Of a stretch of 64,000 nt of DNA, positions 8,811 through 26,764 are shown piece after piece. The notes beneath the pieces are model-generated. The model saw only the letters and a list, made by a program, of their open reading frames with translations, ran no database searches and had not been told where the DNA came from. Position numbers and translations under genes: made by a program. Every line of letters starts with the position of its first letter. The first letter of the stretch is position 1. The stretch spans positions 2,604,001 to 2,668,000 of the forward strand of contig NZ_AP017369.1 in the NCBI RefSeq assembly GCF_002355155.1, in the 5' to 3' direction. This DNA comes from Corynebacterium suranareeae. GTDB taxonomy: Bacteria > Actinomycetota > Actinomycetes > Mycobacteriales > Mycobacteriaceae.

Positions 8811-10109
8811 ATGTCAAACGTTGGAAAGCCACGTACCGCACAGGAAATCCAGCAGGATTGGGATACCAACCCTCGCTGGAACGGCATCACCCGCGACTAC
8901 ACCGCAGATCAGGTAGCTGATCTACAGGGTTCCGTCATTGAGGAACACACTCTTGCCCGCCGTGGCTCCGAGATCCTCTGGGATGCAGTCACCCAGGAAG
9001 GTGACGGATACATCAACGCCCTCGGCGCACTCACCGGTAACCAGGCTGTTCAGCAGGTCCGTGCAGGTCTGAAGGCTGTCTACCTTTCCGGTTGGCAGGT
9101 TGCAGGTGACGCAAACCTTTCTGGCCACACCTACCCTGACCAGTCTCTCTACCCAGCTAACTCTGTTCCAAACGTTGTTCGCCGCATCAACAACGCACTT
9201 CTGCGCTCTGATGAAATCGCCCGCGTTGAAGGTGACACCTCCGTTGACAACTGGCTCGTTCCAATCGTTGCCGACGGCGAGGCTGGCTTCGGTGGCGCAC
9301 TCAACGTCTACGAACTCCAAAAGGCAATGATCGCAGCAGGTGCTGCAGGTACCCACTGGGAAGACCAGCTCGCTTCCGAAAAGAAGTGTGGACACCTCGG
9401 CGGCAAGGTTTTGATCCCAACCCAGCAGCACATCCGCACCCTGAACTCTGCCCGCCTAGCGGCAGACGTTGCTAACACCCCAACCGTTGTTATTGCACGT
9501 ACCGACGCAGAGGCAGCAACCCTGATCACCTCTGATATCGATGAGCGCGATCAACCATTCATCACCGGTGAGCGCACCGCTGAAGGCTACTACCACGTCC
9601 AAAATGGTCTCGAGCCATGTATCGCACGTGCAAAGTCCTACGCACCATACGCTGACATGATCTGGATGGAAACCGGCACCCCAGACCTCGAGTTGGCAAA
9701 GCAGTTCGCTGAAGGTGTTCGCTCTGAATTCCCAGACCAGCTTCTGTCCTACAACTGCTCCCCTTCCTTCAACTGGTCTGCACACCTCGAGGCAGATGAG
9801 ATTGCTAAGTTCCAGAAGGAACTCGGCGCGATGGGCTTCAAGTTCCAGTTCATCACCCTCGCAGGATTCCACTCCCTGAACTACGGCATGTTCGACCTGG
9901 CTTACGGCTACGCTCGCGAGGGCATGACCTCCTTCGTTGACCTGCAGAACCGTGAGTTCAAGGCAGCTGAAGAGCGCGGCTTCACCGCTGTTAAGCACCA
10001 GCGCGAGGTTGGCGCAGGCTACTTCGACCAGATCGCCACCACCGTTGATCCAAACTCTTCTACCACCGCACTGAAGGGTTCTACTGAGGAATTCCAGTTC
10101 CAGAGCTAA
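8811..10109 (+). CDS. aceA: Isocitrate lyase
   Basis: A 432-residue enzyme that splits isocitrate into glyoxylate and succinate, the first step of the glyoxylate shunt. The catalytic KKCGH motif is at residues 191-195, preceded by the substrate-loop [12 protein letters not shown]. The ATG at 8811 ([10 protein letters not shown]) is the known start in the species; GAAGGA lies about ten bases upstream, and the in-frame ATG at 8802 has no spacing to it. Codon use is strongly biased to the preferred C-ending codons, as expected for a very highly expressed gene. A rho-independent terminator follows. Confidence 0.98.
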
Positions 10110-10136
10110 AGCTCGCCATGTGACATTTCTTAAAAG

Positions 10137-10173
10137 GCTCTCGACATCTACACCCAAGATGTCGGGAGCTTTT
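10137..10173 (+). terminator. aceA terminator
   Basis: A 13-bp stem with one G-U pair (GCTCTCGACATCT with AGATGTCGGGAGC), a seven-base loop and TTTT, 28 bases after the aceA stop. Confidence 0.9.
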
Positions 10174-10325
10174 CACTGTTAATTTCTCGCTGCTATAAAG
10201 CAGTAGGTTTCCCGATTCCTCTCATTAGGTGCCCCCAATCGAAGACATGGACTGCACATATTTCGGATTAGTCCATAAACTACTTCTTTAGGGTAGAGCT
10301 TTAAGTCATCCACGAAAGGACATCC

Positions 10326-10901
10326 ATGTCTATTTCCCGCACCGTCTTTGGCATCGCAGCCACCGCAGCCCTGTCTGCAGCTCTTGTTGCTTGTTCTCCT
10401 CCGAACGAGAATGATTCTCCGGTCGAGCGTTCACATGAGATCATGACCACCTCTCAAAGCCCAAGCACCACCAGCAGCACCTCCACTTCGTCTGAAGCAA
10501 CCACTACTCCTGCAGCTCCTGTAGAAGAAAATGTAGAGATCACTGTTTCCCCAGCTGCGCTGGTTGACGGTGAGCAGGTTACTTTTGATATCACCGGACT
10601 TGATCCAGAAGGTGGCTACTACGCAGCTATTTGTGCTGCCGCAGCTGCTCCAGGAAACCCAGTCCCAGTGTGCACTGGTGAAACCGCAGATTTCACCTCC
10701 CAGGCATGGTTGAGCAACTCCCAGCCCGGCGCGACCACTGAGATCGCTGAAGATGGCACCGCAACTGTTGAGTTGCAGGCAACCGCTACCGGCGAAGGCT
10801 TAGACTGCACTGTTCAAGAATGTGTGGCAAAGGTTTTTGGTGACCACACTGAAGGCTTCCGCGATGTAGCCCAGACCCCGGTTACTTTCGCTGCTGCTTA
10901 A
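10326..10901 (+). CDS. Secreted lipoprotein, possible neocarzinostatin-like fold
   Basis: A 191-residue exported protein. The signal peptide ends in the lipobox LVAC at residues 20-23, so it should be lipid-anchored to the membrane. A Ser/Thr/Pro-rich linker (about 25-70) follows. The C-terminal 120 residues contain ITVSPAALVDGEQVTFDITG, a CAAAAAP...C pair and LDCTVQECVAKVFGD; the order of the four cysteines and the ending resemble neocarzinostatin-type apoproteins, a seven-stranded Ig-like fold. That similarity is from memory of the family pattern and needs a profile search. A terminator lies directly downstream. Confidence 0.7.
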   Translation: MSISRTVFGIAATAALSAALVACSPPNENDSPVERSHEIMTTSQSPSTTSSTSTSSEATTTPAAPVEENVEITVSPAALVDGEQVTFDITGLDPEGGYYAAICAAAAAPGNPVPVCTGETADFTSQAWLSNSQPGATTEIAEDGTATVELQATATGEGLDCTVQECVAKVFGDHTEGFRDVAQTPVTFAAA

Positions 10902-11717: not shown

Positions 11718-13619
11718 ATGTCCACCACTACTAACAAAGATTTTCCTGAACCACCCGAACCAATAGAAGAACCAAACTATCCTCACGACACACACCCAGG
11801 TCTTGTTCCTGGAATCTCTGTCGATGATCAACGTAATAAATTCGGACTCGACAAGATAGTTTTCGGAATCACAGCTGTTTTGGTTTTGGCGTTTATTGCC
11901 TGGGGTATTTCTAGCCCCGAATCTGTGTCATCGACGTCGTCGACCATGTTTAGTTGGGCCATGACCAACACCGCTTGGTTGCTTAACTTTGTCATGCTGA
12001 TTGGCATTGGCACGATGGTTTACGTCGCCTTTTCTAGGTACGGCCGCATCAAGCTTGGAACCGATGAGGATGAACCTGAGTTTTCACGGTTCTCCTGGAT
12101 CGCCATGATGTTCGGTGCCGGCATTGGTGTGGGTATCTTCTTCTTCGGCCCCTCTGAACCACTGTGGCATTATCTAAGCCCTCCTCCTCACACTGTTGAA
12201 GGATCAACCCCTGAGTCTTTGCATCAAGCACTTGCTCAATCCCACTTCCACTGGGGTCTGTCAGCGTGGGGTCTATATGCGCTGGTTGGTGGCGCTTTGG
12301 CCTATTCCAGCTATCGCCGTGGCCGAGTCACCCTGATCAGCTCGACCTTCCGTTCTCTATTTGGAGAGAAAACTGAAGGTATTGCAGGACGCCTCATTGA
12401 CATCATGGCCATCATTGCCACCCTTTTTGGTACAGCCGCCACTTTAGGGTTGTCCGCCATTCAGGTGGGTCAGGGCGTACAAATTATCTCCGGCGCTTCG
12501 GCGATGACCAACAATATTCTCATTGTCATCATTGCGATTCTCACCGTATGTTTCATCATTTCAGCAGTATCAGGTGTGTCAAAGGGTATTCGTTATTTAT
12601 CCAATATCAATATCTCTTTAACTCTCGGCCTCATTTTGTTTGTGTTCATCACCGGCCCAACCCTGTTCCTGCTCAATTTGATTCCATCAAGTGTGCTGGA
12701 ATACGGAAGCCAATTCCTATCCATGGCTGGTAAATCCCTGTCCTGGGGTGAAGAAACCATCGAATTCCAGGCCAGCTGGACTGCCTTCTACTGGGCATGG
12801 TGGATTGCCTGGACCCCGTTCGTTGGCATGTTTATCGCCCGCATTTCCAGAGGCCGCACCCTACGCGAGTTCGCGTTAATCACCATGGCTGTTCCTTCAT
12901 TCATTTTGATTCTGGCATTTACCATTTTTGGTGGCGCTGCAATTTCAATGAACCGCGAAAACGTAGCTGGATTTGATGGAAGTTCCTCGAAGGAACAGGC
13001 GCTGTTTGATATGTTCAGCAACCTTCCTCTATATTCCATCACCCCGTTCATTTTGATCTTTGTGCTGGCAGTCTTCTTTGTTACATCCGCCGACTCCGCT
13101 TCAGTGGTGATGGGCACGATGAGTTCTCGAGGAAACCCGGCACCAAATAAACTGATCGTAGTGTTCTGGGGTCTATGCATGATGGGTATTGCAGTAGTCA
13201 TGCTCCTAGCAGGCGGTGAATCAGCACTGACCGGATTGCAAAACCTCACCATTTTGATCGCCATTCCATTTGCCCTGGTGTTGATCTTCATGGCCATTGC
13301 CTTTATTAAGGATCTATCCACTGACCCTGCTGCAATCCGCCACACTTACGCTAAGGCAGCAATTTCAAATGCGGTCGTTCGTGGTTTGGAAGAACACGGC
13401 GATGACTTTGAACTATCCATTGAACCTGCTGAAGAGGGACGCGGCGCTGGCGCTTCCTTTGACTCGACCGCTGACCACATTACTGAGTGGTATCAGCGCA
13501 CAGATGAAGAAGGAAATGACGTCGATTATGACTTCTCCACCGGAGAATGGGCTGATGGTTGGACTCCAAATTCTGCAGAGGACAACACATCTGATCCAGA
13601 CTCAGACAGCAAGAGTTAA
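11718..13619 (+). CDS. lcoP: BCCT-family betaine/ectoine carrier LcoP
   Basis: A 633-residue secondary transporter with twelve predicted membrane segments. The family signature around segment 8 is seen as WTAFYWAWWIAWTPFVGMFIARISRG, whose Trp residues line the betaine site; FGAGIGVGIFFFGPSEP is the first-segment Gly-rich stretch. Both N- and C-terminal tails are long and acidic, a feature of osmosensing BCCT carriers. The position next to the aceA region matches lcoP of C. glutamicum, which imports betaine and ectoine under hyperosmotic stress. The ATG at 11718 has GGAGAGG six bases upstream, better placed than the ATG at 11703. Confidence 0.9.
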   Translation: MSTTTNKDFPEPPEPIEEPNYPHDTHPGLVPGISVDDQRNKFGLDKIVFGITAVLVLAFIAWGISSPESVSSTSSTMFSWAMTNTAWLLNFVMLIGIGTMVYVAFSRYGRIKLGTDEDEPEFSRFSWIAMMFGAGIGVGIFFFGPSEPLWHYLSPPPHTVEGSTPESLHQALAQSHFHWGLSAWGLYALVGGALAYSSYRRGRVTLISSTFRSLFGEKTEGIAGRLIDIMAIIATLFGTAATLGLSAIQVGQGVQIISGASAMTNNILIVIIAILTVCFIISAVSGVSKGIRYLSNINISLTLGLILFVFITGPTLFLLNLIPSSVLEYGSQFLSMAGKSLSWGEETIEFQASWTAFYWAWWIAWTPFVGMFIARISRGRTLREFALITMAVPSFILILAFTIFGGAAISMNRENVAGFDGSSSKEQALFDMFSNLPLYSITPFILIFVLAVFFVTSADSASVVMGTMSSRGNPAPNKLIVVFWGLCMMGIAVVMLLAGGESALTGLQNLTILIAIPFALVLIFMAIAFIKDLSTDPAAIRHTYAKAAISNAVVRGLEEHGDDFELSIEPAEEGRGAGASFDSTADHITEWYQRTDEEGNDVDYDFSTGEWADGWTPNSAEDNTSDPDSDSKS

Positions 13620-13627
13620 ACATTAAC

Positions 13628-13666
13628 TAATGGCCGGGAACTTCATCACGTAGTTCCCGGCCATTA
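13628..13666. terminator. lcoP terminator (symmetrical)
   Basis: A perfect 15-bp stem, TAATGGCCGGGAACT with AGTTCCCGGCCATTA, and a nine-base loop, eight bases after the lcoP stop. The flanking U-run is weak. Its GGCCGGGAA core is shared with the hairpin at 16262-16306. Confidence 0.75.
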
Positions 13667-13945
13667 CTTATTTAAAAAGCCCGATAACCTAACTTTCACA
13701 ATTTTGCTTAGTCCCCCAGTTCCTGACCATTCGCCAAGACGTGGCCTTGCCTCCATGACGTGCTCTTTAAGTGCGACTTCTTAACAGGCGACTTCACATG
13801 GTGCGACTTCACTGGGTGATGGGCCGATTCCGTAGCGATGTCGCCTGTTAAGAAGTTGAGCACGTGAAGTCGACCTGTAGAAGTTCTGAAGCTACACCCT
13901 GGTTACTTTAACTTCGAGATCACACATTCAATATCGCAAGCTCAA
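13667..13945. other. Non-coding stretch with IS30-like end fragments
   Basis: No gene is visible. GTGCGACTTC occurs at 13771 and 13801. A perfect 17-bp inverted repeat, ACTTCTTAACAGGCGAC (13776-13792) and its complement (13840-13856), encloses 47 bases. The segment 13856-13875 (TTGAGCACGTGAAGTCGACC) resembles the inner side of the right end of the IS30 element at 15885-15906. I read it as a leftover end of a related element. Confidence 0.5.
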
Positions 13946-14068
13946 TTTCTTAAGTTCGAAACCGCTAGGAAAGTCACCAAAAACCGCGGGAAATTGAGCT
14001 TAAGAAATTGAGTTCAGGCGACATCAGGTGGTGGTTGCGACACCCTCTTCCTAAAGGAGTGTCCACCA

Positions 14069-15868
14069 ATGACCAGCAGAGAACAACCCACAACCCAGGA
14101 GGCGGTCCGCCGAGTAGCCGACGGGCAGCGAGTAAAAGACGTAGCACTCGATCTTGGAATCCACCCATCCACGATCTACCTAGCGCTCAAGCGCCACGGC
14201 CTGCCCGTGGACAAGACCGCACCCCACCGCGTCCTGAACCCACAAACCAATCGGCACATCCCGAAAAACACCGAACACCCCACAACCACAGAAGCAGTCG
14301 CGAGGGTCAAACGCGGTGAACGAGTCAAAAACGTAGCGAAAGAACTAGGAATCCACCCATCCACGATCTACCTAGCGCTTAAGCGCCACAACCTACCGGT
14401 CGGTAAAAACGCACCCCACCGCGTCCTGAACCCACAAACCAATCGGCATATCCCTAACACCACGGAACGCCCTGCCACGACAGAAGCCGTTACTCGGGTC
14501 AACCGTGGTGAACGAGTGGTTACTGTGGCCAAGGAACTTGGGCTTCACCCGTCAACGATCTACACCGCGATCAAACGCCGCGAAGAAGTAACCGATACCC
14601 CCACACCACCAGGTAAGAAAGGAGAAGGTAATCACAGATGCAGCGACACACCCGCACCTACCACCACGACAACGCAATCACGGTGTACAACGACAGAAGT
14701 GCCTGATTCATCATGTTGTTCTAATGATTCTGTGTCGTCGCGTACTGCTGATCACGTTGTTGCTGATTTCAGTCTGGTTCCTGATACACGAGTAAAAACA
14801 GGCCGCGGGGTGCGGTTAAGCAGTACCGATCGGCTGGTGATCGCCCAAGGGATTAAAGAGGGGTTATCCACCCGGCAGATCGGGACAAAACTCGGCCGTC
14901 ACCATAGTGTGATCGCACGAGAAATCAACCGTGGATCCACCACCTACCTAGATCCAGACACCCAAGAGATCAAGCAGTTGGTGTATAACCCACAAACCGC
15001 TCACTACCACGCCCAGCAACAAGCACGACGACCAAAGGAAAGGAAACTTGATCGCCCGGGCCGGTTACGGGATGTGGTGGTGGAGTATTTATTGCGATAT
15101 TTTTCCCCGAAGCGTGTTGAACAACGCCTTCTTCTGGACTATCCCGATGATAAGAGCATGCATATTTCCCACGAGGCGATCTATCAAAGTTTGTATGTCC
15201 AAGGACGTGGTAGCTTGCGTGAGATCATTGAAGAAGAACTACGCCAACGCGGAATGAATACCAACAAGGTGTTAATCCGTGGTGGGAAAACCCGTCGCCC
15301 CCGGTCCAAGATCGCTGGGTTACGCAATAGGCGTGGCTGGGTTGTCGGTGCAGAAATCACCACGCGCCCACCTGAGGCTGATGATCGTCGGGTTCCAGGG
15401 CATTGGGAAGGTGATTTAGTGATCGGTGCAGGGGGTCAATCAGCGTTGTTGACACTGGTGGAGCGATCAAGTCGGTTTACGTTGTTAAAGCATTTACCTG
15501 ATGATCATGCCTCGTCCACGGTTGTTGGTGCATTACAGGAAATGATTGCGTCGATGCCGGGGAAGTTTTCCACGATTACTTGGGATCAGGGATCGGAAAT
15601 GGCTAGTGCTCGTAAAGTTATTGATCCTGCAGAATGTGGGATTTATTTTTGTGATCCTCATTCACCGTGGCAGCGTCCGACCAATGAGAATACAAATGGT
15701 GAGATCCGGCGGAGGTTTTATCCAAAGGGCACTGATTTCCGTGAGGTAACCCCGGAGCATGTCGCGTGGGTTCAAGATGAATTAAACGACACACCGAGGT
15801 TGGTGTTAGGCGCGATGACGCCGTATGAGAAAATGAATGAAGTATTAACTGTCGCAACCACCCAATGA
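14069..15868 (+). CDS. IS30-family transposase with triplicated N-terminal HTH unit
   Basis: A 599-residue DDE transposase. Residues about 5-190 are three copies of a 64-residue unit containing a helix-turn-helix (VKDVALDLGIHPSTIYLALK and variants). Then comes the usual IS30 HTH (STRQIGTKLGRHHSVIAREI, about 265-285) and the catalytic core: D449 in GDLVIG, D506 in WDQGSEM and E540 in NENTNGE, with the 33-residue spacing expected of IS30. AAAGGAGTG lies ten bases before the ATG. The usual IS30 enzyme is about 350-460 residues, so the extra length is the repeat block. The frame is intact. Confidence 0.92.
   Translation: MTSREQPTTQEAVRRVADGQRVKDVALDLGIHPSTIYLALKRHGLPVDKTAPHRVLNPQTNRHIPKNTEHPTTTEAVARVKRGERVKNVAKELGIHPSTIYLALKRHNLPVGKNAPHRVLNPQTNRHIPNTTERPATTEAVTRVNRGERVVTVAKELGLHPSTIYTAIKRREEVTDTPTPPGKKGEGNHRCSDTPAPTTTTTQSRCTTTEVPDSSCCSNDSVSSRTADHVVADFSLVPDTRVKTGRGVRLSSTDRLVIAQGIKEGLSTRQIGTKLGRHHSVIAREINRGSTTYLDPDTQEIKQLVYNPQTAHYHAQQQARRPKERKLDRPGRLRDVVVEYLLRYFSPKRVEQRLLLDYPDDKSMHISHEAIYQSLYVQGRGSLREIIEEELRQRGMNTNKVLIRGGKTRRPRSKIAGLRNRRGWVVGAEITTRPPEADDRRVPGHWEGDLVIGAGGQSALLTLVERSSRFTLLKHLPDDHASSTVVGALQEMIASMPGKFSTITWDQGSEMASARKVIDPAECGIYFCDPHSPWQRPTNENTNGEIRRRFYPKGTDFREVTPEHVAWVQDELNDTPRLVLGAMTPYEKMNEVLTVATTQ
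14094..14580 (+). repeat. Three tandem 192-base units inside the transposase gene
   Basis: Landmarks such as CACCCATCCACGATCTACC recur exactly 192 bases apart (14162, 14354), and the third, more diverged copy follows another 192 bases later. Units one and two are nearly identical, including the linker encoding APHRVLNPQTNRHIP; unit three has a different linker and drifts from 14545 on. Confidence 0.85.
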
Positions 15869-15926
15869 CAGCGCCTTCAAGGTATTGAGCACGAGAAATC
15901 GACACCGTGAAATCGAACTTAAGAAA

Positions 15927-18117: not shown

Positions 18118-19695
18118 GTGAAAAAGCGAAACGTCTTGCTGGCTCCGGTAGTTGCATCTGTTGTGTGCGGCACCATCGCCACCAGCATTGTTCCAACACA
18201 TGCTGCACCGACTGATAAGTCACCGATCGTTATTAATGAGGTCGAGTCCAACGGTGATCCAATCGGAGATTTCGTTGAGTTGGCAAACACGGACAACAAC
18301 AACTCCATCGATATCTCTGGTTGGACTTTGGTGGACGAAAAAGATGAAAACGCTGTTGTTTTGCCAGAAGGAACTGAAATTGAGTCCGGCGGATACTTTG
18401 TTATCTACACCGACGCCGAAAATTATCAATCGACCAACAACACCTATGGTGGCACAGACCATTTCGGTCTAGGCAAAGATGACACTGTAACTTTGCGTAA
18501 CGCTGCGGGTGAGACTGTGGATTCTTATTCGTGGAAAGATCTGGGTAAACACGCAGAGCACACTTATGGCCGCGTCCCCGATATGGTTGGCGAGTTCGCT
18601 GAAACAGGTGCGTCCACCCCAGGTGCTAAAAATATTGCAGCTTCGGGCTCGGAAGAGCCAGGTCTGGTTACCAACGCCCAGCTCCCTTTCCACGATGTGA
18701 AGATTTCCCCTGTGCACCTCGGTGGAGATTTCACTGGTGAAGACATGTCGGGTGTCGATTTCGATGCGTCAGGAACAGCATGGATCGCCAACAATGACAT
18801 CGGCAAAATCTACTCCCTTGCACACGACCCTGCTGATAATTCTTATGAGCTCAGTGGTCAGTGGGAAACTGCCTACCCAGAAGGTGGCGGACAACCAGAT
18901 GCTGAGGGAATTGTCGCAGCTAAAAACGGTGATATTTATCTATCCACTGAACGCGACAATGCTAATAAGAATGTCTCGCGCCCATCCATTTTGAAATTTG
19001 CTAATCCCACTGGCAAAGACGGCGTACAAACGGCTGTTGCAGAGTGGAATCTTTCGGAGTTCACCGGCGATATCCAACCTAATGGTGGCCTTGAAGCTAT
19101 CGCGCAGCTAGAAGACAATATCTTCGTTGTTGGCGTCGAGGAAACAGGCGACCTCCTCGTGGTCGACCTTTCTGCACAGGATCCTGTGTTGCTCCAACGA
19201 TATGAGTCCGCGTTCGAAGGCGTCATGGCCCTTGATTACAACGCAGCAAGCAAAAAGCTCAGCGTCTTATGTGATGAAGCGTGCGACGGCATGTCTGAAG
19301 TTCTTGACTGGGATGGATCTTCATTGTCCAAGTCGGATGATTTGATCTATGAACGCCCAGTCCAACTAGGTAATTGGGCTAACGAGGGCTTTTGTACGTT
19401 CACCACTGAACTGGCGTGTGAAAAGGGTGGCACTGTCACTGCTACGAGCTACCTTTGGGCAGATGACGCCTCCTCAAACGAGGGTACTTCTCTTAATTCC
19501 GCTCAGATCATCGACGGTGAATGCGACAACACACAGCCTCAAGGCAGCTCGTCCAATGAGTTTATCTCTGGCAGCGTCGCAGGCTCGCTTGCCACTTCAG
19601 TTTTGGCAGTTGTCGGCATTGCAGGAGCCCTAGGTGGATTTATCCAACAATTGCTCGCAGCGTTCCCTATGCTCCAGCAGTTTTTCCGCGCCTAA
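18118..19695 (+). CDS. Secreted lamin-tail-domain protein with beta-propeller-like region
   Basis: A 525-residue exported protein. A signal peptide ends near THAAP (residue 30). Residues about 37-150 form a lamin-tail domain (IVINEVESNG, FVELANTDN, ISGWTLVDE, GGYFVIY, DDTVTLRNA), an Ig-like module common in secreted nucleases and phytases. Residues 190-470 have repeated propeller-like strands such as GVDFDASGTAWIANND and DAEGIVAAKNGDIYLSTE, as in esterase-like phytase or SdiA-regulated proteins. The end has a hydrophobic segment that may anchor it in the envelope. The start is GTG with a weak site. Ligand and reaction are unknown. Confidence 0.75.
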   Translation: MKKRNVLLAPVVASVVCGTIATSIVPTHAAPTDKSPIVINEVESNGDPIGDFVELANTDNNNSIDISGWTLVDEKDENAVVLPEGTEIESGGYFVIYTDAENYQSTNNTYGGTDHFGLGKDDTVTLRNAAGETVDSYSWKDLGKHAEHTYGRVPDMVGEFAETGASTPGAKNIAASGSEEPGLVTNAQLPFHDVKISPVHLGGDFTGEDMSGVDFDASGTAWIANNDIGKIYSLAHDPADNSYELSGQWETAYPEGGGQPDAEGIVAAKNGDIYLSTERDNANKNVSRPSILKFANPTGKDGVQTAVAEWNLSEFTGDIQPNGGLEAIAQLEDNIFVVGVEETGDLLVVDLSAQDPVLLQRYESAFEGVMALDYNAASKKLSVLCDEACDGMSEVLDWDGSSLSKSDDLIYERPVQLGNWANEGFCTFTTELACEKGGTVTATSYLWADDASSNEGTSLNSAQIIDGECDNTQPQGSSSNEFISGSVAGSLATSVLAVVGIAGALGGFIQQLLAAFPMLQQFFRA

Positions 19696-20164: not shown

Positions 20165-20677
20165 TTACAGTGCGCGGAACACTACTGTGTAGCTTCCATC
20201 TGGGCGGGCTACAACTCCCACACCACCGCGGGTGATTCCCTGCTGCAACATATTGTTCTTGTGCGATGGCGATCCATCCCACAAGGTAACTGCACGTTCT
20301 GGGCTGCTGCAGTACGCGACGTTTTCATAGAAGTTTCCGCCAGCTGGATGTCCTGCTGGTGCACCGGAATCAGTGAGGCTTTGTGCCCATGAATGCGCGC
20401 CGGCAGCTAGGTTGGCATCTGCTGCCACTGCCCCCAAACCGTGTTGCGCACGATACAGATTGATTTGGTTCAATACCGCAGTTTCTACTGCTGAAGAATT
20501 ACCTGCGGCAGCTGGTTGTGCAAATACAGGGGCGATAGCTGGAGTTACGCCAAGATCGCTTGATCCCATGGCTGATACTGGTGAAGCGGAGACTGCTTGA
20601 AGGCTGGCTAGAGCGATTGCAGCTGTGCTTGCAAGAATTCCGACTCTTTTAAAGGCTGAGACTTTAAAGAAAGTCAT
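20165..20677 (-). CDS. Secreted CAP-domain (SCP-like) protein
   Basis: A 170-residue protein with a signal peptide (LASTAAIALASLQAVSAS) and a CAP/SCP domain over the last 110 residues: LNQINLYRAQHGLGAV, HSWAQSLTDSG, NFYENVAYCS and HKNNMLQQGITRGGVGV. Bacterial CAP proteins are extracellular and of mostly unknown function; some bind lipids or act as proteases. Some of the metal-binding His positions of eukaryotic CAP proteins are present (HPAGG, HKNN). GAAGAGGTG lies five bases before the ATG. It marks the left edge of the island described below. Confidence 0.85.
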   Translation of the reverse strand: MTFFKVSAFKRVGILASTAAIALASLQAVSASPVSAMGSSDLGVTPAIAPVFAQPAAAGNSSAVETAVLNQINLYRAQHGLGAVAADANLAAGAHSWAQSLTDSGAPAGHPAGGNFYENVAYCSSPERAVTLWDGSPSHKNNMLQQGITRGGVGVVARPDGSYTVVFRAL

Positions 20678-22018
20678 GGCACCTCTTCCTAAGTATTCTT
20701 ATCTGAGATTTCGCTTAACAAAGCGGGACAAGCCTAAGAATAGCTTAAGATTAGGAACTTAGCTAACTTTCTTATAATAAGTTAGATTGCAGAATATATA
20801 AATGTATTTTAATCAGGAAACCCCAGACAGGAAGAATTTTCATTCCGTCTTTAACGCTCAACGTAGGAGAATCTAAAGTAATAAAAAATTAAGCGTCGTA
20901 CTGACTACGTCGACTCTGAAAGATTTTTACTTAACTTTTACTAAGCAATCGCTGCTAAAATTTTTACACTAAAAATAAAAAATCTGCTCACTTTGAGATT
21001 CATTTAGTCTCTTACGTGACCCACCAGGATTAAGCCCTGCTTGGCAGGCACCGGCTACCCTACAACCCGGGACACGAAGGAGACTTGCCGATCATCGTTC
21101 TAAAGTCTATTCAACATAGGGCTCACATAAGAAAGTTGAGGTGTACGACACGAAGAATGAACAGGTGTTACTCCAGCAGATCCTCAGCGATCTCAGCACC
21201 AATGAATCGACACTGCATAACGTTCGCCTACTAAGCACAGCCCCCGCCACACAAAACAACAGTATCTACGAGCCATACGGATCCCCACGATGAGGAACGA
21301 AAACGCACACAGCTTTTCCGACACGACACCAAATTTCTGATCCCTCTTCCGGTTTGTGGACCACCCTCATCACCCTATTCTCATAGACGTTTAGGTGAGA
21401 GCGTTGAAAAATCAACCGCTCCCCCAGGATAAACGCCCCACCACCTAGTCAGTTCTGGGTGCTTAAACAAAGACACTCTGGGTAGAAGCATCCGCAATCG
21501 ACGTAAAGATCACTCTTAAACAAATTGTCCACATCATGTCAACGAAATAGCCGCCCCTGAATCCTATACGCTGGGCTTATTTTATTAGCAGCTCAAGGTT
21601 CGTCTTATTTTAATGCTGTAGGTCCTACTGAATGGGTGCCCCTCAAACCGTTGCAGGCCGGGTAGCACCTGAACCCGTCCTAGATTCCGACATACTCCCA
21701 AATGCTAACTACGAGAAAATGCTCAGATATTTTCGCCACCTCACGGCTGGGTAAGAATGCTAAATCTTCGGATTCTTGGAGTACCCAAACGCTTGGGATA
21801 TGTAGATGCATTCCGGTGGGTGCCGAGCCCATACTCAATACGGTGGGGCTGCCGTCCTACCACTCGAAGGACGACTTCGCGAAGCGTCACAATAGTAATT
21901 AATCAGTTTTACCCAGAAAGCGGAGGCACTCGTAACAACAGCATTACGTGTAGGCTAGGCCACACTCGACCGCACGACCTAGATTCCACAACAGATTAAT
22001 TATGTTTAGGAGACCACT
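20678..22018. other. Long stretch without a recognisable gene
   Basis: 1.34 kb. The first 250 bases are AT-rich and hold the CAP gene promoter. From about 21000 the base composition changes and only short, start-less frames remain (for example around 21700-22000). I see no RNA gene, transposase or phage sequence. It looks like decayed DNA of the island's left half. Confidence 0.5.
20930..20948 (+). repeat. Island left repeat (attL-like)
   Basis: CTTAACTTTTACTAAGCAA, identical to 26694-26712. Confidence 0.6.
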
Positions 22019-22996
22019 ATGCGAGTCGTTATTATTGGAGCCACAGGCAACCACGGTACTGCTGTGCTCAAAGCGTTGCAGTCCACCCATGAAGTTACAC
22101 ACATTACCGGTATCGCTCGGCGTCTTCCTGATGCTAACTTCAAACCTTACGCTGGCTGCGAGTGGGAAACTGTGGATATCGCTGCAGCCAGTACTGCTAC
22201 CGACGCAATCATTGAATTAACCGACATACTCCAAGGAACTGACGCGGTAATTCATTTAGCCTGGTTAATTCAGCCGAACAAGCGCCGAGAACTTCTCAGC
22301 CGAGTAAATGTGAAGGGCACCCGACGCGTCGCCGAGGCTATAGCTGCTGCTGGAGTGCCACGCCTGGTGGTCGCTAGCTCCGTAGGGGCTCATGCTCCTG
22401 ATCACAGCCGTAAAGATAAAGAAAACCCGCCTCTGCGGGAAGAGAATTGGCCCGCCACCGGCATAGCATCGACTCACTACAGCTGCGACAAGGCTGGTAC
22501 GGTAGCTGCGAATGCTGGCTGTATTGATATGGCCATGCAAGCACCCATGATGGATAGCTCCGGTGCGGTGAAGGGATTAGGTTGGCAACCACAGCACAGT
22601 GTGGCCGATGCTTTGCGCGAATTGTTTAACGCTCTGTGTAGTGGCCAAAGGGCTTCGTTTCTACCGCTGCGCCCCCGTGAACGGGTCCCTGTCGCCCCCT
22701 CGGGTGACATTCCCAATGAGATGTCGCAAGAAGAGCCTCTTCAGCTGCAACTTACCAACCACTTGACCGGGGCAACCGCAGCCACGGACCGAGTGGCACA
22801 TGACTACGTAGACACCCCAATGTTCGCGACAGTCTCGGCTTTGGCCGTGGAAATCCAGACGAAACGAGAATCTTTAAAAAATTTTATCCAACGATCAACT
22901 CTCAAGCAGATGTCATACCGACAGGCCGTCGCAGACGACGCTGAAAAGATAGGAAGGTTAAAGGACAACGAGCGGGTGGCAAGTCGCCCTCCCTGA
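22019..22996 (+). CDS. SDR-like protein with missing middle, fused to a second domain
   Basis: 325 residues. The N-terminus is an extended SDR: GATGNHG nucleotide motif at residues 7-13, DAVIHLAWL, VVASSVGAHAP and catalytic-type Y154-SCD-K158. Nine residues later the sequence jumps to CIDMAMQAPMMDSSGAVKGLGWQPQHS, which in this family comes about 100 residues further on, so most of the substrate-binding part is absent. From about residue 245 (LTNHLTGATAATDRV... IGRLKDNERVASRP) it matches a separate small helical actinobacterial protein family of unknown role, cut short at its end. AGGAG lies near the ATG. It may be inactive as a dehydrogenase. Confidence 0.6.
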   Translation: MRVVIIGATGNHGTAVLKALQSTHEVTHITGIARRLPDANFKPYAGCEWETVDIAAASTATDAIIELTDILQGTDAVIHLAWLIQPNKRRELLSRVNVKGTRRVAEAIAAAGVPRLVVASSVGAHAPDHSRKDKENPPLREENWPATGIASTHYSCDKAGTVAANAGCIDMAMQAPMMDSSGAVKGLGWQPQHSVADALRELFNALCSGQRASFLPLRPRERVPVAPSGDIPNEMSQEEPLQLQLTNHLTGATAATDRVAHDYVDTPMFATVSALAVEIQTKRESLKNFIQRSTLKQMSYRQAVADDAEKIGRLKDNERVASRPP

Positions 22997-23085
22997 CGAT
23001 GCGGCTCGAGACCGAGCTGACGCGCAGTGCAGTAATCGTTAAAAGGCGGGTGGGAAACTGTAATTAAGTCCTCGGAAAAACGCAG

Positions 23086-23232
23086 ATGGACCGCACGCCT
23101 TTCGCGAAGTTCCGCGATAACATCCCCGATCGACTCACAGTTTTAGATGAGGTACACACTTATGCACGTTCCCGAGCTTTATTAAAAACACATGAGGTCT
23201 ACAAAGATCAAACAATCCACCCTCAAGAATAG
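23086..23232 (+). CDS. Possible 48-residue protein
   Basis: MDRTPFAKFRDNIPDRLTVL... is open from ATG 23086 to TAG 23230-23232, nine bases before the next microprotein start. It is polar and helical. The site upstream is weak, so it may be a remnant rather than a gene. I do not recognise it. Confidence 0.3.
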   Translation: MDRTPFAKFRDNIPDRLTVLDEVHTYARSRALLKTHEVYKDQTIHPQE

Positions 23233-23241
23233 GAGCTAGAG

Positions 23242-23400
23242 ATGACTGACCCAAAGAAAAGGGCAAAAGGAGAGAACCTCGATCCTACGGAACCAAAAAA
23301 CGGCGATATAAATACCGAGGGTCCGAAAAATAATGCGGAGACTGTGGAGGAATGGGAATATGAGTCTTTTCCAGCCAGTGATCCTCCTCAGAACTATTGA
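23242..23400 (+). CDS. FPASDPP-motif microprotein (52 residues)
   Basis: MTDPKKRAKGENLDPTEPKN... is very polar and probably unfolded until its C-terminus, EWEYESFPASDPPQNY. The ESFPASDPP tail is a short motif I know from many small bacterial proteins and protein ends, of unknown function, often near stress genes. AGGAG lies six bases before the ATG. The stop is six bases before the start of the pncC-like gene, so it belongs to that operon. Confidence 0.65.
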   Translation: MTDPKKRAKGENLDPTEPKNGDINTEGPKNNAETVEEWEYESFPASDPPQNY

Positions 23401-23406
23401 TCAGCT

Positions 23407-23886
23407 ATGACTCTTACTAACGTTGCCACACAGATTTCCGAATTGGCCACCCATCATGGTTTTACTGTTGCCGTTGCAGAATCGTTGACCGGTGGAAAAA
23501 TCACTAGCCGACTTAGTGCTGCTCCGGATTCCTCTCGATGGTTGGCTGGAGGCATAGTTTGCTATGAAACTCGGATCAAATATGAGGTGCTTGGGGTGCC
23601 CGAAGGAACCCCAGTTATAACAGAAGCAGCGGTGAATGCCATGGTCACTGGTATTGCTGATCTGATGACTGCGGATGCGACCGTTGCTGTCTCGGGTGCA
23701 GGCGGGCCAAGTGACCAAGAAGGAAAACCCCCAGGCACAACGTGGATAGCAGTCATGGTCCGTGATGCTATTCACACTGAGCTACACCATTTCCGCGGTG
23801 AACCAGAGGAGATTCTCCACGCAACCGAAGAGCATGCCCTGCACCTGTTGTACAACAAATTAGTCGAGGCCTGCTCGACTATTTGA
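23407..23886 (+). CDS. pncC: Nicotinamide-nucleotide amidohydrolase PncC (CinA C-terminal domain only)
   Basis: A 159-residue stand-alone CinA C-terminal domain, with AESLTGGKITSRL (the family's catalytic-type Ser/Thr and Lys), GGIVCYETRIKYEVLGV, and AVSGAGGPSDQEGKPPGTTWIAV (typical TGIAGPGG-like loop, here SGAGGPSD). PncC deamidates nicotinamide mononucleotide to nicotinate mononucleotide, recycling pyridine nucleotides. Many CinA-like genes are carried on islands as second copies. It lies between the microprotein and the alcohol dehydrogenase genes. The activity is inferred from the family. Confidence 0.8.
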   Translation: MTLTNVATQISELATHHGFTVAVAESLTGGKITSRLSAAPDSSRWLAGGIVCYETRIKYEVLGVPEGTPVITEAAVNAMVTGIADLMTADATVAVSGAGGPSDQEGKPPGTTWIAVMVRDAIHTELHHFRGEPEEILHATEEHALHLLYNKLVEACSTI

Positions 23887-23913
23887 CCAACACTTCCCTA
23901 CCTAAGGAGAAAA

Positions 23914-25125
23914 ATGAAAGCGTTGACCTGGCAAGGAAAACGAAAAGTAAGTGTAGAAACCGTACCCGATCCAGAGCTTAAAACCTCCACGGATGCCATT
24001 ATCGAAGTGACGTCCACTGCTATCTGCGGTTCAGACCTTCATCTTTATGAAGTACTTGGGCCTTTCATGGATCCTGGCGACATCATCGGACATGAACCAA
24101 TGGGAAGAGTTGTCGAAGCAGGGTCAGCTACCCACCTAAAGGAAGGGGATCGTGTAGTCATTCCCTTCACGATCTCTTGTGGCACCTGCTGGATGTGTAA
24201 ACGCGGATTGTACTCGCAATGCGAAACGACCCAGGTGACCGAACACGGTTCTGGAGCGAAACTCTTCGGTTACTCCCGTCTGTATGGTTCTGTACCGGGT
24301 GCGCAGGCACAATACCTGAGAGTTCCACACGCTGATTTCGGCCCCATCAAAGTCGGTGAGGAACTACCTGACCACCGCTACCTCTTCCTAAGTGATGTTT
24401 TGCCGACTGCATGGCAAGGTGTGAAGTACGCCGGTGTCCGCGAAGGTGACACACTTGCTGTCTACGGTCTAGGCCCAGTGGGACAAATGGCAGCACGCAT
24501 CGGTCGGCATTTGGGCGCCCGGGTATTCGGTATCGATCCGGTCCCTGAACGTCGTGCAATGGCGGCCCGTCACGGTATCGAGGTGTTCGATTTTAATGAA
24601 GACACAAATGACGCTATCCGAGACACCACTGACGGGCGTGGTCCAGACTGTGTCGTAGATGCCGTGGGTATGGAAGCTCACGGTTCCTCTGTAGGCAAAC
24701 TTGCCCATCAAGCTATCGGTGTGCTGCCCGATGCACTCGGTCGGAAAATGATGGAACACGGCGGATTGGACCGCCTCTCGGCTGTGCATTCAGCTATCGA
24801 TTTGGTACGCCGTGGCGGAACTATCTCACTCTCCGGTGTCTACGGTGGACAGGCTAGCCCGATGCCAATGCTCACTCTCTTTGATAAACAAATTCAACTG
24901 CGTATGGGCCAGTGCAACGTAAAAAGATGGATCGATGACCTCCTACCGCTAGTAGAAGATTCATCCGATCCTCTAGGGGTAGATGACCTGGTCACACACC
25001 GCGTACCTCTTGTAGATGCACCGTCGGCTTATGAGAAGTTCCAAAAAAAGCACGACGGATGCATCAAGGTTGTGCTAGATCCACACTCCATCGAAGAGGC
25101 CACCGTGGATTCACCCCTCGACTAA
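23914..25125 (+). CDS. Zinc-dependent alcohol/formaldehyde dehydrogenase-like protein
   Basis: A 403-residue MDR-superfamily enzyme. The catalytic zinc region is CGSDLHLYE and GHEPMGRVVE, the structural zinc loop CGTCWMCKRGLYSQC has its four Cys, and the Rossmann motif is YGLGPVGQMAARIG. Length and the GPDCVVDAVGMEAHG segment fit the glutathione-independent formaldehyde dehydrogenase-like subgroup. The substrate is unknown. AAGGAG lies six bases before the ATG and the upstream stop is 28 bases away, so it ends the four-gene island operon. Confidence 0.82.
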   Translation: MKALTWQGKRKVSVETVPDPELKTSTDAIIEVTSTAICGSDLHLYEVLGPFMDPGDIIGHEPMGRVVEAGSATHLKEGDRVVIPFTISCGTCWMCKRGLYSQCETTQVTEHGSGAKLFGYSRLYGSVPGAQAQYLRVPHADFGPIKVGEELPDHRYLFLSDVLPTAWQGVKYAGVREGDTLAVYGLGPVGQMAARIGRHLGARVFGIDPVPERRAMAARHGIEVFDFNEDTNDAIRDTTDGRGPDCVVDAVGMEAHGSSVGKLAHQAIGVLPDALGRKMMEHGGLDRLSAVHSAIDLVRRGGTISLSGVYGGQASPMPMLTLFDKQIQLRMGQCNVKRWIDDLLPLVEDSSDPLGVDDLVTHRVPLVDAPSAYEKFQKKHDGCIKVVLDPHSIEEATVDSPLD

Positions 25126-25334
25126 CCAAGACACTGCCATGTATGCGGTCGCCCCAGAAAAACTTATCGTTATCTAGAGAGGAGCTTTAACCGCAGGTCA
25201 TGTTTAACAGCAAAAGGCGACAGTAATATTTCGTTCACTCCGTGTTCCCCGTCTCACTGACGGAATTCCTATAAAATTTTCCTGTGTCATGAGGCGGGTA
25301 TAACAGTCGAGGCGGGGGTGCGCCCGTATGGTGA

Positions 25335-26591
25335 TTTGAGACAGGGGCTAGGAGAATTAGTTCCATGTCGAATCGCCGTATCTTCACTGAAGAGTTCAAA
25401 GCAGGGGCTGTACAACTCGTCGTATCATCCGGGCGCTCCATCAAAGATGTAGCCACCGAGTTAGGCATCCAAGAAGCAACATTGGGTGCGTGGGTAAGCC
25501 TGGAAAACTTAAACACCCCGATGCTGGTGTGGATGAACCAGGCCCTGTTGAGTGAGCGAAATACAAGGCTTTGCAGGCTGAGAATGCTGCGTTGAAACGA
25601 GAGAATGAGTTTCTGGGAAAAGCCAGAGCTTTCTTTGCAGCGAAGCACCTGTATAGGATTTCGATGCGTTCATCGAGCAAGATAAGGCCGTCTTTTCTAT
25701 CACATGAATGTGATAGGAAACTGGGCGTATCCGCAGTCGTCGTATTATTGCTGCCCAAAGCCTGCGGGTCTAACGCCAACTGCTAAAAGACACGTGTATT
25801 TCAGGGACGAGGTCGTCCAGGAGTTTAAAGACAGCAACCAGATGGCTGGTAGGGATCAGCAGACCATGGTGCTGTACCAGCGGGGTGTCAAAGTTTCTGT
25901 TGGGATCGTGGGATCAATTATGAACGAATGAGGAGTGCGTGCCAGATGGATGCGTGCCTGGAAGAACACCACGGGCAGTGACCCCGCAGCACGAACCGAG
26001 CACATCCACAATCATATGCTCGACAGCCACAGGAAACGAGACTTCACCGCCGACGTACCTGGGGCCAGGCTTGTCGATGACATCACCTGCCTAAAGACGG
26101 GTTCGGGGTGGCTGTACTTGGCTACCGTGATTGATTTGGCTACGCGAATGGTGGTGGGGTGGTCGATGGATTCCACTATGCCCACACCGTTGGTGATTAA
26201 CGCGCTAGGTATGGCAGGTGATCATGGGCATCTTCATCCTGAGGATGCAATTTTTCACTCGGATCAAGGATCGTAATACACTTCCGGAGAATTTCAGAAG
26301 TGATGTGCGGCAACAAGATCACCGAGTCGATGGGAGTGAGCGGGGTGTATTGGGATAATGCAGTAGCGGAGTATTTCTTCTCTTCTGAAAACCGAAATGT
26401 ATCACCATTGTGGCTGTAAGAATCACCTTTCGGCCAGGGCCACGGTGATGGAATATATCGCGGGTTGGTGCAACCGGCGCCGTCCTTATAGCAATAACCA
26501 GGGGCTGTTGCCCGCTGGTGCTTGACCGCATATCAGCAACAGTATGGGCTAGCAGCAGCGTAAGAGAAAAACTCAATCAAGCTGTCTCAAA
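25335..26591 (+). mobile_element. Decayed IS3-family insertion sequence
   Basis: The ends carry TTTGAGACAG at 25335-25344 and its complement CTGTCTCAAA at 26582-26591. Between them both transposase frames of an IS3-type element can be read only in pieces. Real borders may lie a few bases further out. The element forms the right part of the island. Confidence 0.75.
25365..26575 (+). pseudogene. IS3-family OrfA/OrfB transposase remnants
   Basis: OrfA begins MSNRRIFTEEFKAGAVQLVV with the HTH segment VATELGIQEATLGAWV, then changes frame near 25560 and continues as LQAENAALKRENEFLGKA, the leucine-zipper end. OrfB survives in fragments: about 25935-26275 gives LVDDITCLKTGSGWLYLATVIDLATRMVVGW (first Asp) and AIFHSDQGS (second Asp), followed by a stop. 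VYWDNAVAEYF (Glu region) and EYIAGWCNRRRPYSNN lie in other frames up to 26575. At least four frame changes or stops mean it is not functional. Confidence 0.85.
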
Positions 26592-26693
26592 AACTTGACG
26601 AGTGCAGTCTCCAACTAGGAGAACATATAGTGCAAATATTTGATATTAAAATAATAAGCATCGCATAGTTTTCTATCACTTTGACTAATCTTG

Positions 26694-26712
26694 CTTAACT
26701 TTTACTAAGCAA
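26694..26712 (+). repeat. Island right repeat (attR-like)
   Basis: CTTAACTTTTACTAAGCAA, identical to 20930-20948. With the preceding TTG it forms an imperfect palindrome (TTGCTTA...TAAGCAA). It touches the dctM terminator. Confidence 0.6.
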
Positions 26713-26764
26713 AAAACCGCCACAGCCCTGCTCTACCAAATAGAGAAAAGCTGTAACGGTTTTA
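26706..26764 (-). terminator. dctPQM terminator
   Basis: On the minus strand AAAACCGTTACAGC pairs with GCTGTGGCGGTTTT with mismatches, around a 20-base loop, and TTTTTT follows. It lies directly after dctM and its outer edge overlaps the island's right repeat. Confidence 0.65.

What the first reader, a model, noticed from the sequence alone, without database searches (positions are those of the whole stretch)
20930..26712. Exact 19-bp direct repeat brackets a 5.8-kb accessory island
CTTAACTTTTACTAAGCAA occurs only at 20930-20948 and 26694-26712. Inside lie all the odd genes of this part (fused SDR, microproteins, PncC-like, adh, dead IS3 element, 1 kb of decayed DNA); outside are ordinary chromosomal genes. 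A 19-mer match by chance within 64 kb is improbable, and its fit to both edges more so. It looks like the footprint of site-specific insertion, with the recombinase now lost. The right copy is palindromic with its flank and touches the dctM terminator.
Basis: partly seen in the sequence, partly recalled or inferred. Interest (0 to 1): 0.7.

Follow-up and report, generated by a model that had tools for sequence, protein, structure and literature searches.

The report
Small decayed island beside dctM
A 5.8-kilobase block of acquired, partly broken metabolic genes sits between two ordinary genes of a Corynebacterium chromosome, framed by identical short repeats that look like the scar of a past insertion; this is an ordinary kind of genomic island, now probably immobile.

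Summary
CTTAACTTTTACTAAGCAA occurs twice in the 3.54-Mb genome, at 20930-20948 and 26694-26712, and at up to 2 mismatches in none of the other 241 genus genomes held. It extends to 22 bp with one mismatch; the right copy is a perfect 7-8-7 inverted repeat abutting the dctM terminator. Comparison supports an insertion: all 7 relatives found with the same neighbourhood lack the block. In 6 of them CAP and dctM matches are 289-441 bp apart; here 6,103 bp, or 339 bp without one 5,764-bp repeat unit. The cargo is a recurring Corynebacterium cassette (SDR, microprotein, PncC/CinA, Zn-ADH) seen elsewhere in other species. The SDR is not a fusion but an internally deleted, truncated relic. An IS3 relic lies at about 25319-26606. 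The repeat has the geometry of a tyrosine-integrase core site, but no recombinase or remnant was found in the island, no relative carries the site, and no second strain of this species was available. "Acquired insertion" is well supported; "site-specific" is likely but unproven. New member of a known kind, low interest.

The parts
20165..20677 (-). CAP-domain (PF00188) protein gene, left chromosomal neighbour
   Evidence: Pfam; orthologue beside dctM in 6 relatives
20640..20765 (.). CAP start and upstream block conserved with relative G116; the left breakpoint should lie to its right
   Evidence: blastn E 3e-10
20927..20948 (+). left copy of the direct repeat (22 nt; exact 19-mer at 20930-20948), attL-like
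20949..22018 (.). decayed DNA, no recognisable gene or recombinase remnant in the searches made
22019..22996 (+). relic of an approx. 535-aa NAD-dependent epimerase/SDR: internal deletion at a repeated (D/H)KA motif and lost C-terminus
22997..23240 (+). out-of-frame remains of the SDR C-terminus
23242..23400 (+). 52-aa microprotein ending ESFPASDPPQNY, cassette member
   Evidence: tblastn hits in 10 of 11 relative clusters opened
23407..23886 (+). PncC/CinA C-terminal-type amidohydrolase, intact ORF
   Evidence: PF02464; TIGR00199
23914..25125 (+). zinc-dependent alcohol/formaldehyde dehydrogenase, intact ORF
   Evidence: PF08240/PF00107
25319..26606 (+). IS3-family relic with imperfect terminal inverted repeats and indels; ends placed by homology on the left and by the inverted repeat on the right
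26691..26712 (+). right copy of the direct repeat (19-mer at 26694-26712), perfect 7-8-7 inverted repeat, attR-like
26714..26762 (-). dctM terminator stem-loop
   Evidence: fold

Best explanation
The block is a small genomic island of 5,764 bp (one repeat unit plus interior) inserted into the CAP-dctM intergenic space of this lineage. It carries an aldehyde/stress-type cassette (SDR, microprotein, PncC/CinA, Zn-ADH) that probably came from another Corynebacterium. The likely mechanism is site-specific recombination between a chromosomal site just past the dctM terminator and the same core on incoming DNA. A tyrosine-type recombinase would bind the two 7-bp arms and exchange strands in the 8-bp spacer, leaving one core at each end. 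The recombinase was then lost or always acted in trans. The SDR was deleted internally and truncated (before or after arrival), an IS3 element inserted and decayed, and the island became fixed. Shown: the repeats, the empty neighbourhood in relatives, the decay. Supported: cargo from outside. Inferred: enzyme type, direction and order of events.
For: Two exact 19-mers and no more in the genome. 7 of 7 relatives found with the same gene order lack the block. Excising one repeat unit leaves a 339-bp gap against 289-441 bp between match ends in the six relatives that keep CAP. The CAP upstream region is conserved with G116 up to 20765 and the IS relic ends at about 26606, so both breakpoints fall in short intervals that contain the repeats. 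The repeat has 7-8-7 inverted-arm geometry. In the ADH tree the window sequence pairs with an unnamed protein P0002 (98/96), nearest next to P0003 named C. halotolerans, and not with ADHs of its nearer relatives G044, G046, G144 and G156. PncC at E up to 1e-30 was not found in G236, G186 and G116.
Against: No recombinase or remnant in the island. The core is not recognisable in the empty site of G186: alignment no better than shuffles, 133 of 1000 as good. The 19-mer is absent from the other genomes searched at up to 2 mismatches, from viral contigs as an exact match, and matches in named phages and plasmids are chance-level (best E 0.6 to 2). The palindrome is only about a 1% event. Base composition does not mark the block as foreign.
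Confidence: 0.6

Rival explanations
1. The block was inserted, but by illegitimate or short-homology recombination or an unrecognised transposition with a long target duplication, so the 19-22 bp repeat is a by-product and not an integrase core.
For: No recombinase found; core not recognisable in G186; no other copy of the site in what was searched.
Against: 19 exact bp plus inverted arms at the insertion point is long for microhomology (established knowledge, no call). The island ends show no terminal inverted repeats: local score 9.0, 573 of 1000 shuffles as good, 60 nt of each end tested.
Confidence: 0.28
2. The island is ancestral and the relatives lost it, perhaps by recombination between the repeats.
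For: Four relatives with the same dctM neighbourhood (G144, G044, G156, G046) have the PncC-ADH part of the cassette elsewhere in their genomes, so loss in others is possible. In G236 the CAP gene is not detected at this locus, so the locus is labile.
Against: Deletion between the repeats would leave one 19-mer; none of the 7 empty loci has one, also not at up to 3 mismatches. Where present in relatives the cassette is at another locus (coordinates).
Confidence: 0.06
3. The two 19-mers are a coincidence unrelated to the island edges.
For: None beyond the AT-richness of the motif.
Against: Expected 0.01 matches, 0 of 100 shuffles with two; both copies lie inside the short intervals to which the breakpoints are confined.
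Confidence: 0.03

Closest known systems
Integrase-type genomic islands / prophages flanked by attL and attR (tyrosine recombinase)
   Same: Direct repeat at both ends, inverted-arm core with short spacer, insertion next to a gene end, empty locus in relatives, acquired cargo.
   Different: No integrase or remnant found, only 5.8 kb, target is past a protein-gene terminator with no tRNA gene in the window, single-copy attB not shown.
Corynebacterium SDR / microprotein / PncC-CinA / Zn-ADH cassette (e.g. G154 C. halotolerans, G138 C. occultum)
   Same: Same genes, order and orientation in G154 and G138; ADH 80-87% identical in 10 of the 11 clusters opened.
   Different: Here it lies at the dctM locus, the SDR is a relic and the cassette is framed by direct repeats.
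IS3-family element relative in plasmid pCOCCU of Corynebacterium occultum
   Same: 83-93% DNA identity over 25319-26507.
   Different: The window copy has 14 gap events against the larger piece of the plasmid copy; the plasmid copy is interrupted by an IS21-type element.

Membership tests
Genomic island (horizontally acquired insertion) | Absent from the same locus in relatives | tested here: met
   7 of 7 relatives found with the same gene order lack it
Genomic island (horizontally acquired insertion) | Cargo phylogeny departs from the species | tested here: met
   ADH tree: window ADH pairs with P0002 (98/96), then P0003, not with the G044/G046/G144/G156 group (92/98). Root uncertain, and no species tree was built
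Genomic island (horizontally acquired insertion) | Deviating composition | tested here: not met
   GC 0.52-0.54 and GC3 0.46-0.52 for island genes against GC 0.49-0.53 and GC3 0.42-0.56 for five flanking genes (profile)
Tyrosine-integrase element (attL/attR) | Identical core repeat at both ends | tested here: met
   19 bp exact, 22 bp with 1 mismatch
Tyrosine-integrase element (attL/attR) | Core with inverted arms and 6-8 bp spacer | tested here: inconclusive
   7-8-7 geometry present, but 27 of 2000 shuffles match it
Tyrosine-integrase element (attL/attR) | Integrase encoded in the element | tested here: not met
   No integrase domain in island ORFs or in the 10 longest pieces of the decayed stretch; the genome's three PF00589 hits are elsewhere
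Tyrosine-integrase element (attL/attR) | Empty site holds one copy of the core | tested here: inconclusive
   Other-species empty loci lack the 19-mer and, for G186, are too diverged to align; no same-species strain
Tyrosine-integrase element (attL/attR) | Excision as a circle | not testable with these tools
   needs reads or PCR
Composite or unit transposon | Terminal inverted repeats at the island ends | tested here: not met

The most novel reading that the evidence does not exclude
A minimal cargo cassette that never carried its own recombinase and moved by using a 7-8-7 core recognised in trans by a resident tyrosine recombinase, with the space behind a protein-gene terminator as its docking site.
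Probability: 0.07. Interest if true: 0.5.

Novelty: new member of a known kind. Interest (0 to 1): 0.2.

Why it matters
It is one more case of how accessory metabolic cassettes reach a Corynebacterium chromosome and decay there, and it corrects the 'fused SDR' reading. If an active relative using the same 22-bp core were found, it would give a new integration site in the C. glutamicum group, which could be useful for vectors. By itself it is ordinary.

Tried and rejected
Searches for the repeat elsewhere gave nothing informative. There was no exact match in viral contigs, only chance-level matches in phages and plasmids (the left and right contexts against phages, the right context alone against plasmids; best E 0.6 to 2), and none in the other 396 of 397 order genomes at up to 1 mismatch. 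At up to 3 mismatches 18 of 242 genus genomes match, this one included; all 19 places outside this genome have 3 mismatches and none is the CAP-dctM locus. The reversed control pattern hits at least as many genomes.

I looked for the origin of the decayed 1 kb. A glycosyltransferase next to the SDR in C. halotolerans gave a weak hint (E 0.02; domain score 3.1 against a best of 1.5 in 200 shuffles), but it was found in only 1 of the 13 loci searched, so I leave it open. Pfam gave nothing; PHROGs gave two families of unknown function at E 0.076 and 0.29; a plasmid search gave nothing at E up to 0.01. I gave the 10 longest of the 19 frame pieces of at least 36 aa. Rfam (12000-34000) and tRNA searches were empty.

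I tested whether the genome's third PF00589 gene lies near a similar core: in the 19-kb stretch around it no place matched the arms at up to 3 mismatches, and the 19-mer matched once at 6 mismatches. PF00239 resolvases are all elsewhere in the genome and were not followed. The G186 empty site did not align with the repeat better than shuffles, a result against a clean reading. The AT-rich control (6 of 316) includes 2 stretches that overlap the right copy itself.

Paper searches listed no report of this repeat or island. Of those papers I saw listings and starts of abstracts, plus passages of PMC5506516, where no att core sequence was shown. This is no claim that nothing is in print.

That G236 is C. 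glutamicum ATCC 13032 rests on its length of 3,309,401 bp and is recalled. The label 'deserti' for G116 inside the scripts is a guess and is not used here. The species of the window was not established. What is said about tyrosine-recombinase core geometry is recalled and comes from no call. At least one row of the ADH tree file holds a stop character.

Full report
Observation. The exact 19-mer lies at 20930-20948 and 26694-26712, in direct orientation, with no third copy in the window at up to 3 mismatches; dinucleotide shuffles expect 0.01 matches and 0 of 100 gave two. The window is part of a single-contig genome of 3,537,507 bp (G000), in which the pattern occurs only at these two places (up to 2 mismatches, up to 3). 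Of 201 genus genomes only this one has it at up to 2 mismatches, and of 397 order genomes only this one at up to 1 mismatch. At up to 3 mismatches 18 of all 242 genus genomes match, this one included; every match outside this genome has 3 mismatches, and the reversed control hits at least as many genomes. The repeat extends to 22 nt with one difference, TTRCTTAACTTTTACTAAGCAA. The right copy is a perfect inverted repeat, 7-bp arms around 8 nt; the left copy has one arm mismatch. As RNA on the minus strand, the right copy folds as a second hairpin directly after the dctM terminator stem.

Empty locus. A dctM orthologue (E up to 1e-150) is present in 22 of 242 genus genomes including this one. 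I fetched wide regions around it from 18 of the other 21; two of the remaining three, G086 and G091, were seen as named loci L035 and L037, and G183 only as a 4.3-kb locus that I did not examine further. Of the 18, seven share the order g16986, LTD protein, (g19764), (CAP), dctM: G186, G156, G046, G044, G144, G116 and G236. None of the seven has an SDR, PncC, ADH or IS3 match at E up to 1e-5 in the fetched region (the ADH rows printed come from L204-L211, stored in the same file, as one search shows). In six of them the CAP and dctM tblastn matches are 289 (G186), 337 (G156), 350 (G046), 320 (G044), 345 (G144) and 441 bp (G116) apart; in four of these the CAP match starts at residue 9 or 10, so the true gap is some 25 bp shorter. 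In the window the gap is 6,103 bp; taking out one repeat unit of 5,764 bp leaves 339 bp. In G236 the CAP gene is not detected and the g19764 match ends about 140 bp from dctM. In the other 11 widened genomes dctM has none of these neighbours, and they say nothing about the island.

Where the edges are. DNA conserved with G116 runs from the CAP start through its upstream region to 20765 (E 3e-10). On the other side the IS3 relic ends at about 26606 and the dctM terminator stem begins at about 26714. The breakpoints are therefore confined to roughly 20766-20948 and 26607-26712, and both copies of the repeat lie in these intervals. The intergenic DNA itself has diverged too far to show the ancestral site: the G186 sequence beside the terminator aligns to the window's left flank with repeat no better than shuffles (133 of 1000 as good).

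Cargo. SDR, microprotein, PncC/CinA and Zn-dependent ADH form a recurring cassette. PncC (E up to 1e-30) is found in 22 of 242 genus genomes including this one, but not in G236, G186 or G116. I opened 11 of the other 21 loci: ADH sits next to PncC in 10 of 11, the microprotein is detected in 10 of 11, and the SDR in 7 of 11. By their coordinates none of these loci is the dctM neighbourhood. In the ADH tree of 22 rows the window protein pairs with the unnamed P0002 (98/96), with P0003 (named C. halotolerans) nearest next, while G044, G046, G144 and G156 form their own group (92/98). The root is uncertain and I built no species tree; this favours, but does not prove, acquisition from another Corynebacterium over vertical descent. 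Base composition is not deviant.

Decay. The 325-aa 'fused SDR' is not a fusion. Apart from itself and P0127, the listed homologues (118 of the best 120; 993 in all) are 520-569 aa, the upper end being set by the search's length limit, and most align to 49% of it. The alignment shows one internal deletion at a repeated (D/H)KA motif and a C-terminus lost to a stop, with its remains still readable in another frame downstream. One unnamed protein from a 1,666-bp contig, P0127 (325 aa, 86% identical), shares the same deletion and end, which suggests that the relic is older than this lineage and exists in another. The IS3-family relic at 25319-26606 has imperfect terminal inverted repeats, 14 gap events against the larger piece of the copy in plasmid pCOCCU, and no matching 3-bp target duplication. 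The first 1,070 bp have no recognisable gene in the searches made. PncC and ADH are intact open frames.

Mechanism. Shown: a repeat at both ends, an empty locus in relatives, decay. Supported: cargo from outside. Inferred: that the repeat is a recombinase core. In favour are the length of the exact repeat, its inverted-arm shape, the absence of terminal inverted repeats at the island ends and the fit to the breakpoints. Against are the lack of any recombinase or remnant, the mild significance of the palindrome (27 of 2000 shuffles; 6 of 316 AT-rich 45-mers, 2 of them overlapping the right copy), and the absence of a single-copy site in any genome searched. The genome's three PF00589 genes lie elsewhere, and no similar core was found in the 19-kb stretch around the one at 2,098,404. 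I put site-specific insertion at about 0.6, other insertion mechanisms at 0.28, loss in the relatives at 0.06 and coincidence at 0.03.

Verdict. It is an ordinary, degraded genomic island and a new member of a known kind.

Noticed in passing
window 14069-15868: IS30-family transposase ORF of 599 aa with three tandem helix-turn-helix units spaced 64 aa apart at its N-terminus; units 1 and 2 share 50 of 64 residues.
   Followed up: partly
L203 (G236) 15761-15900: The CAP gene next to dctM is not detected in G236, so this intergenic space is labile in the group.
   Followed up: no
L123 (G116) 12168-14240: dctM matches in G116 fall into two pieces and dctQ/dctP matches are partial, suggesting a broken dctPQM operon there.
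   Followed up: no
G000:C1:153590-154769 (L190): A second, more distant ADH of the same family (66% DNA identity), with a PF00239 resolvase about 3.3 kb away at 158113.
   Followed up: no
L189 (G000:C1:2089000-2108000): A PF00589 integrase gene (9354-10514) with a partial second copy about 8.7 kb away (18529-18945).
   Followed up: partly
P0127 (unnamed protein, contig of 1,666 bp): Shares the same internal deletion and early stop of the SDR relic at 86% identity, so the relic seems to occur in a second lineage.
   Followed up: partly
H21, MT835505.1 18473-19644: The only match of the island in the phage collection: an unannotated phage record from human faeces encodes a 66% identical stretch over the ADH.
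   Followed up: no
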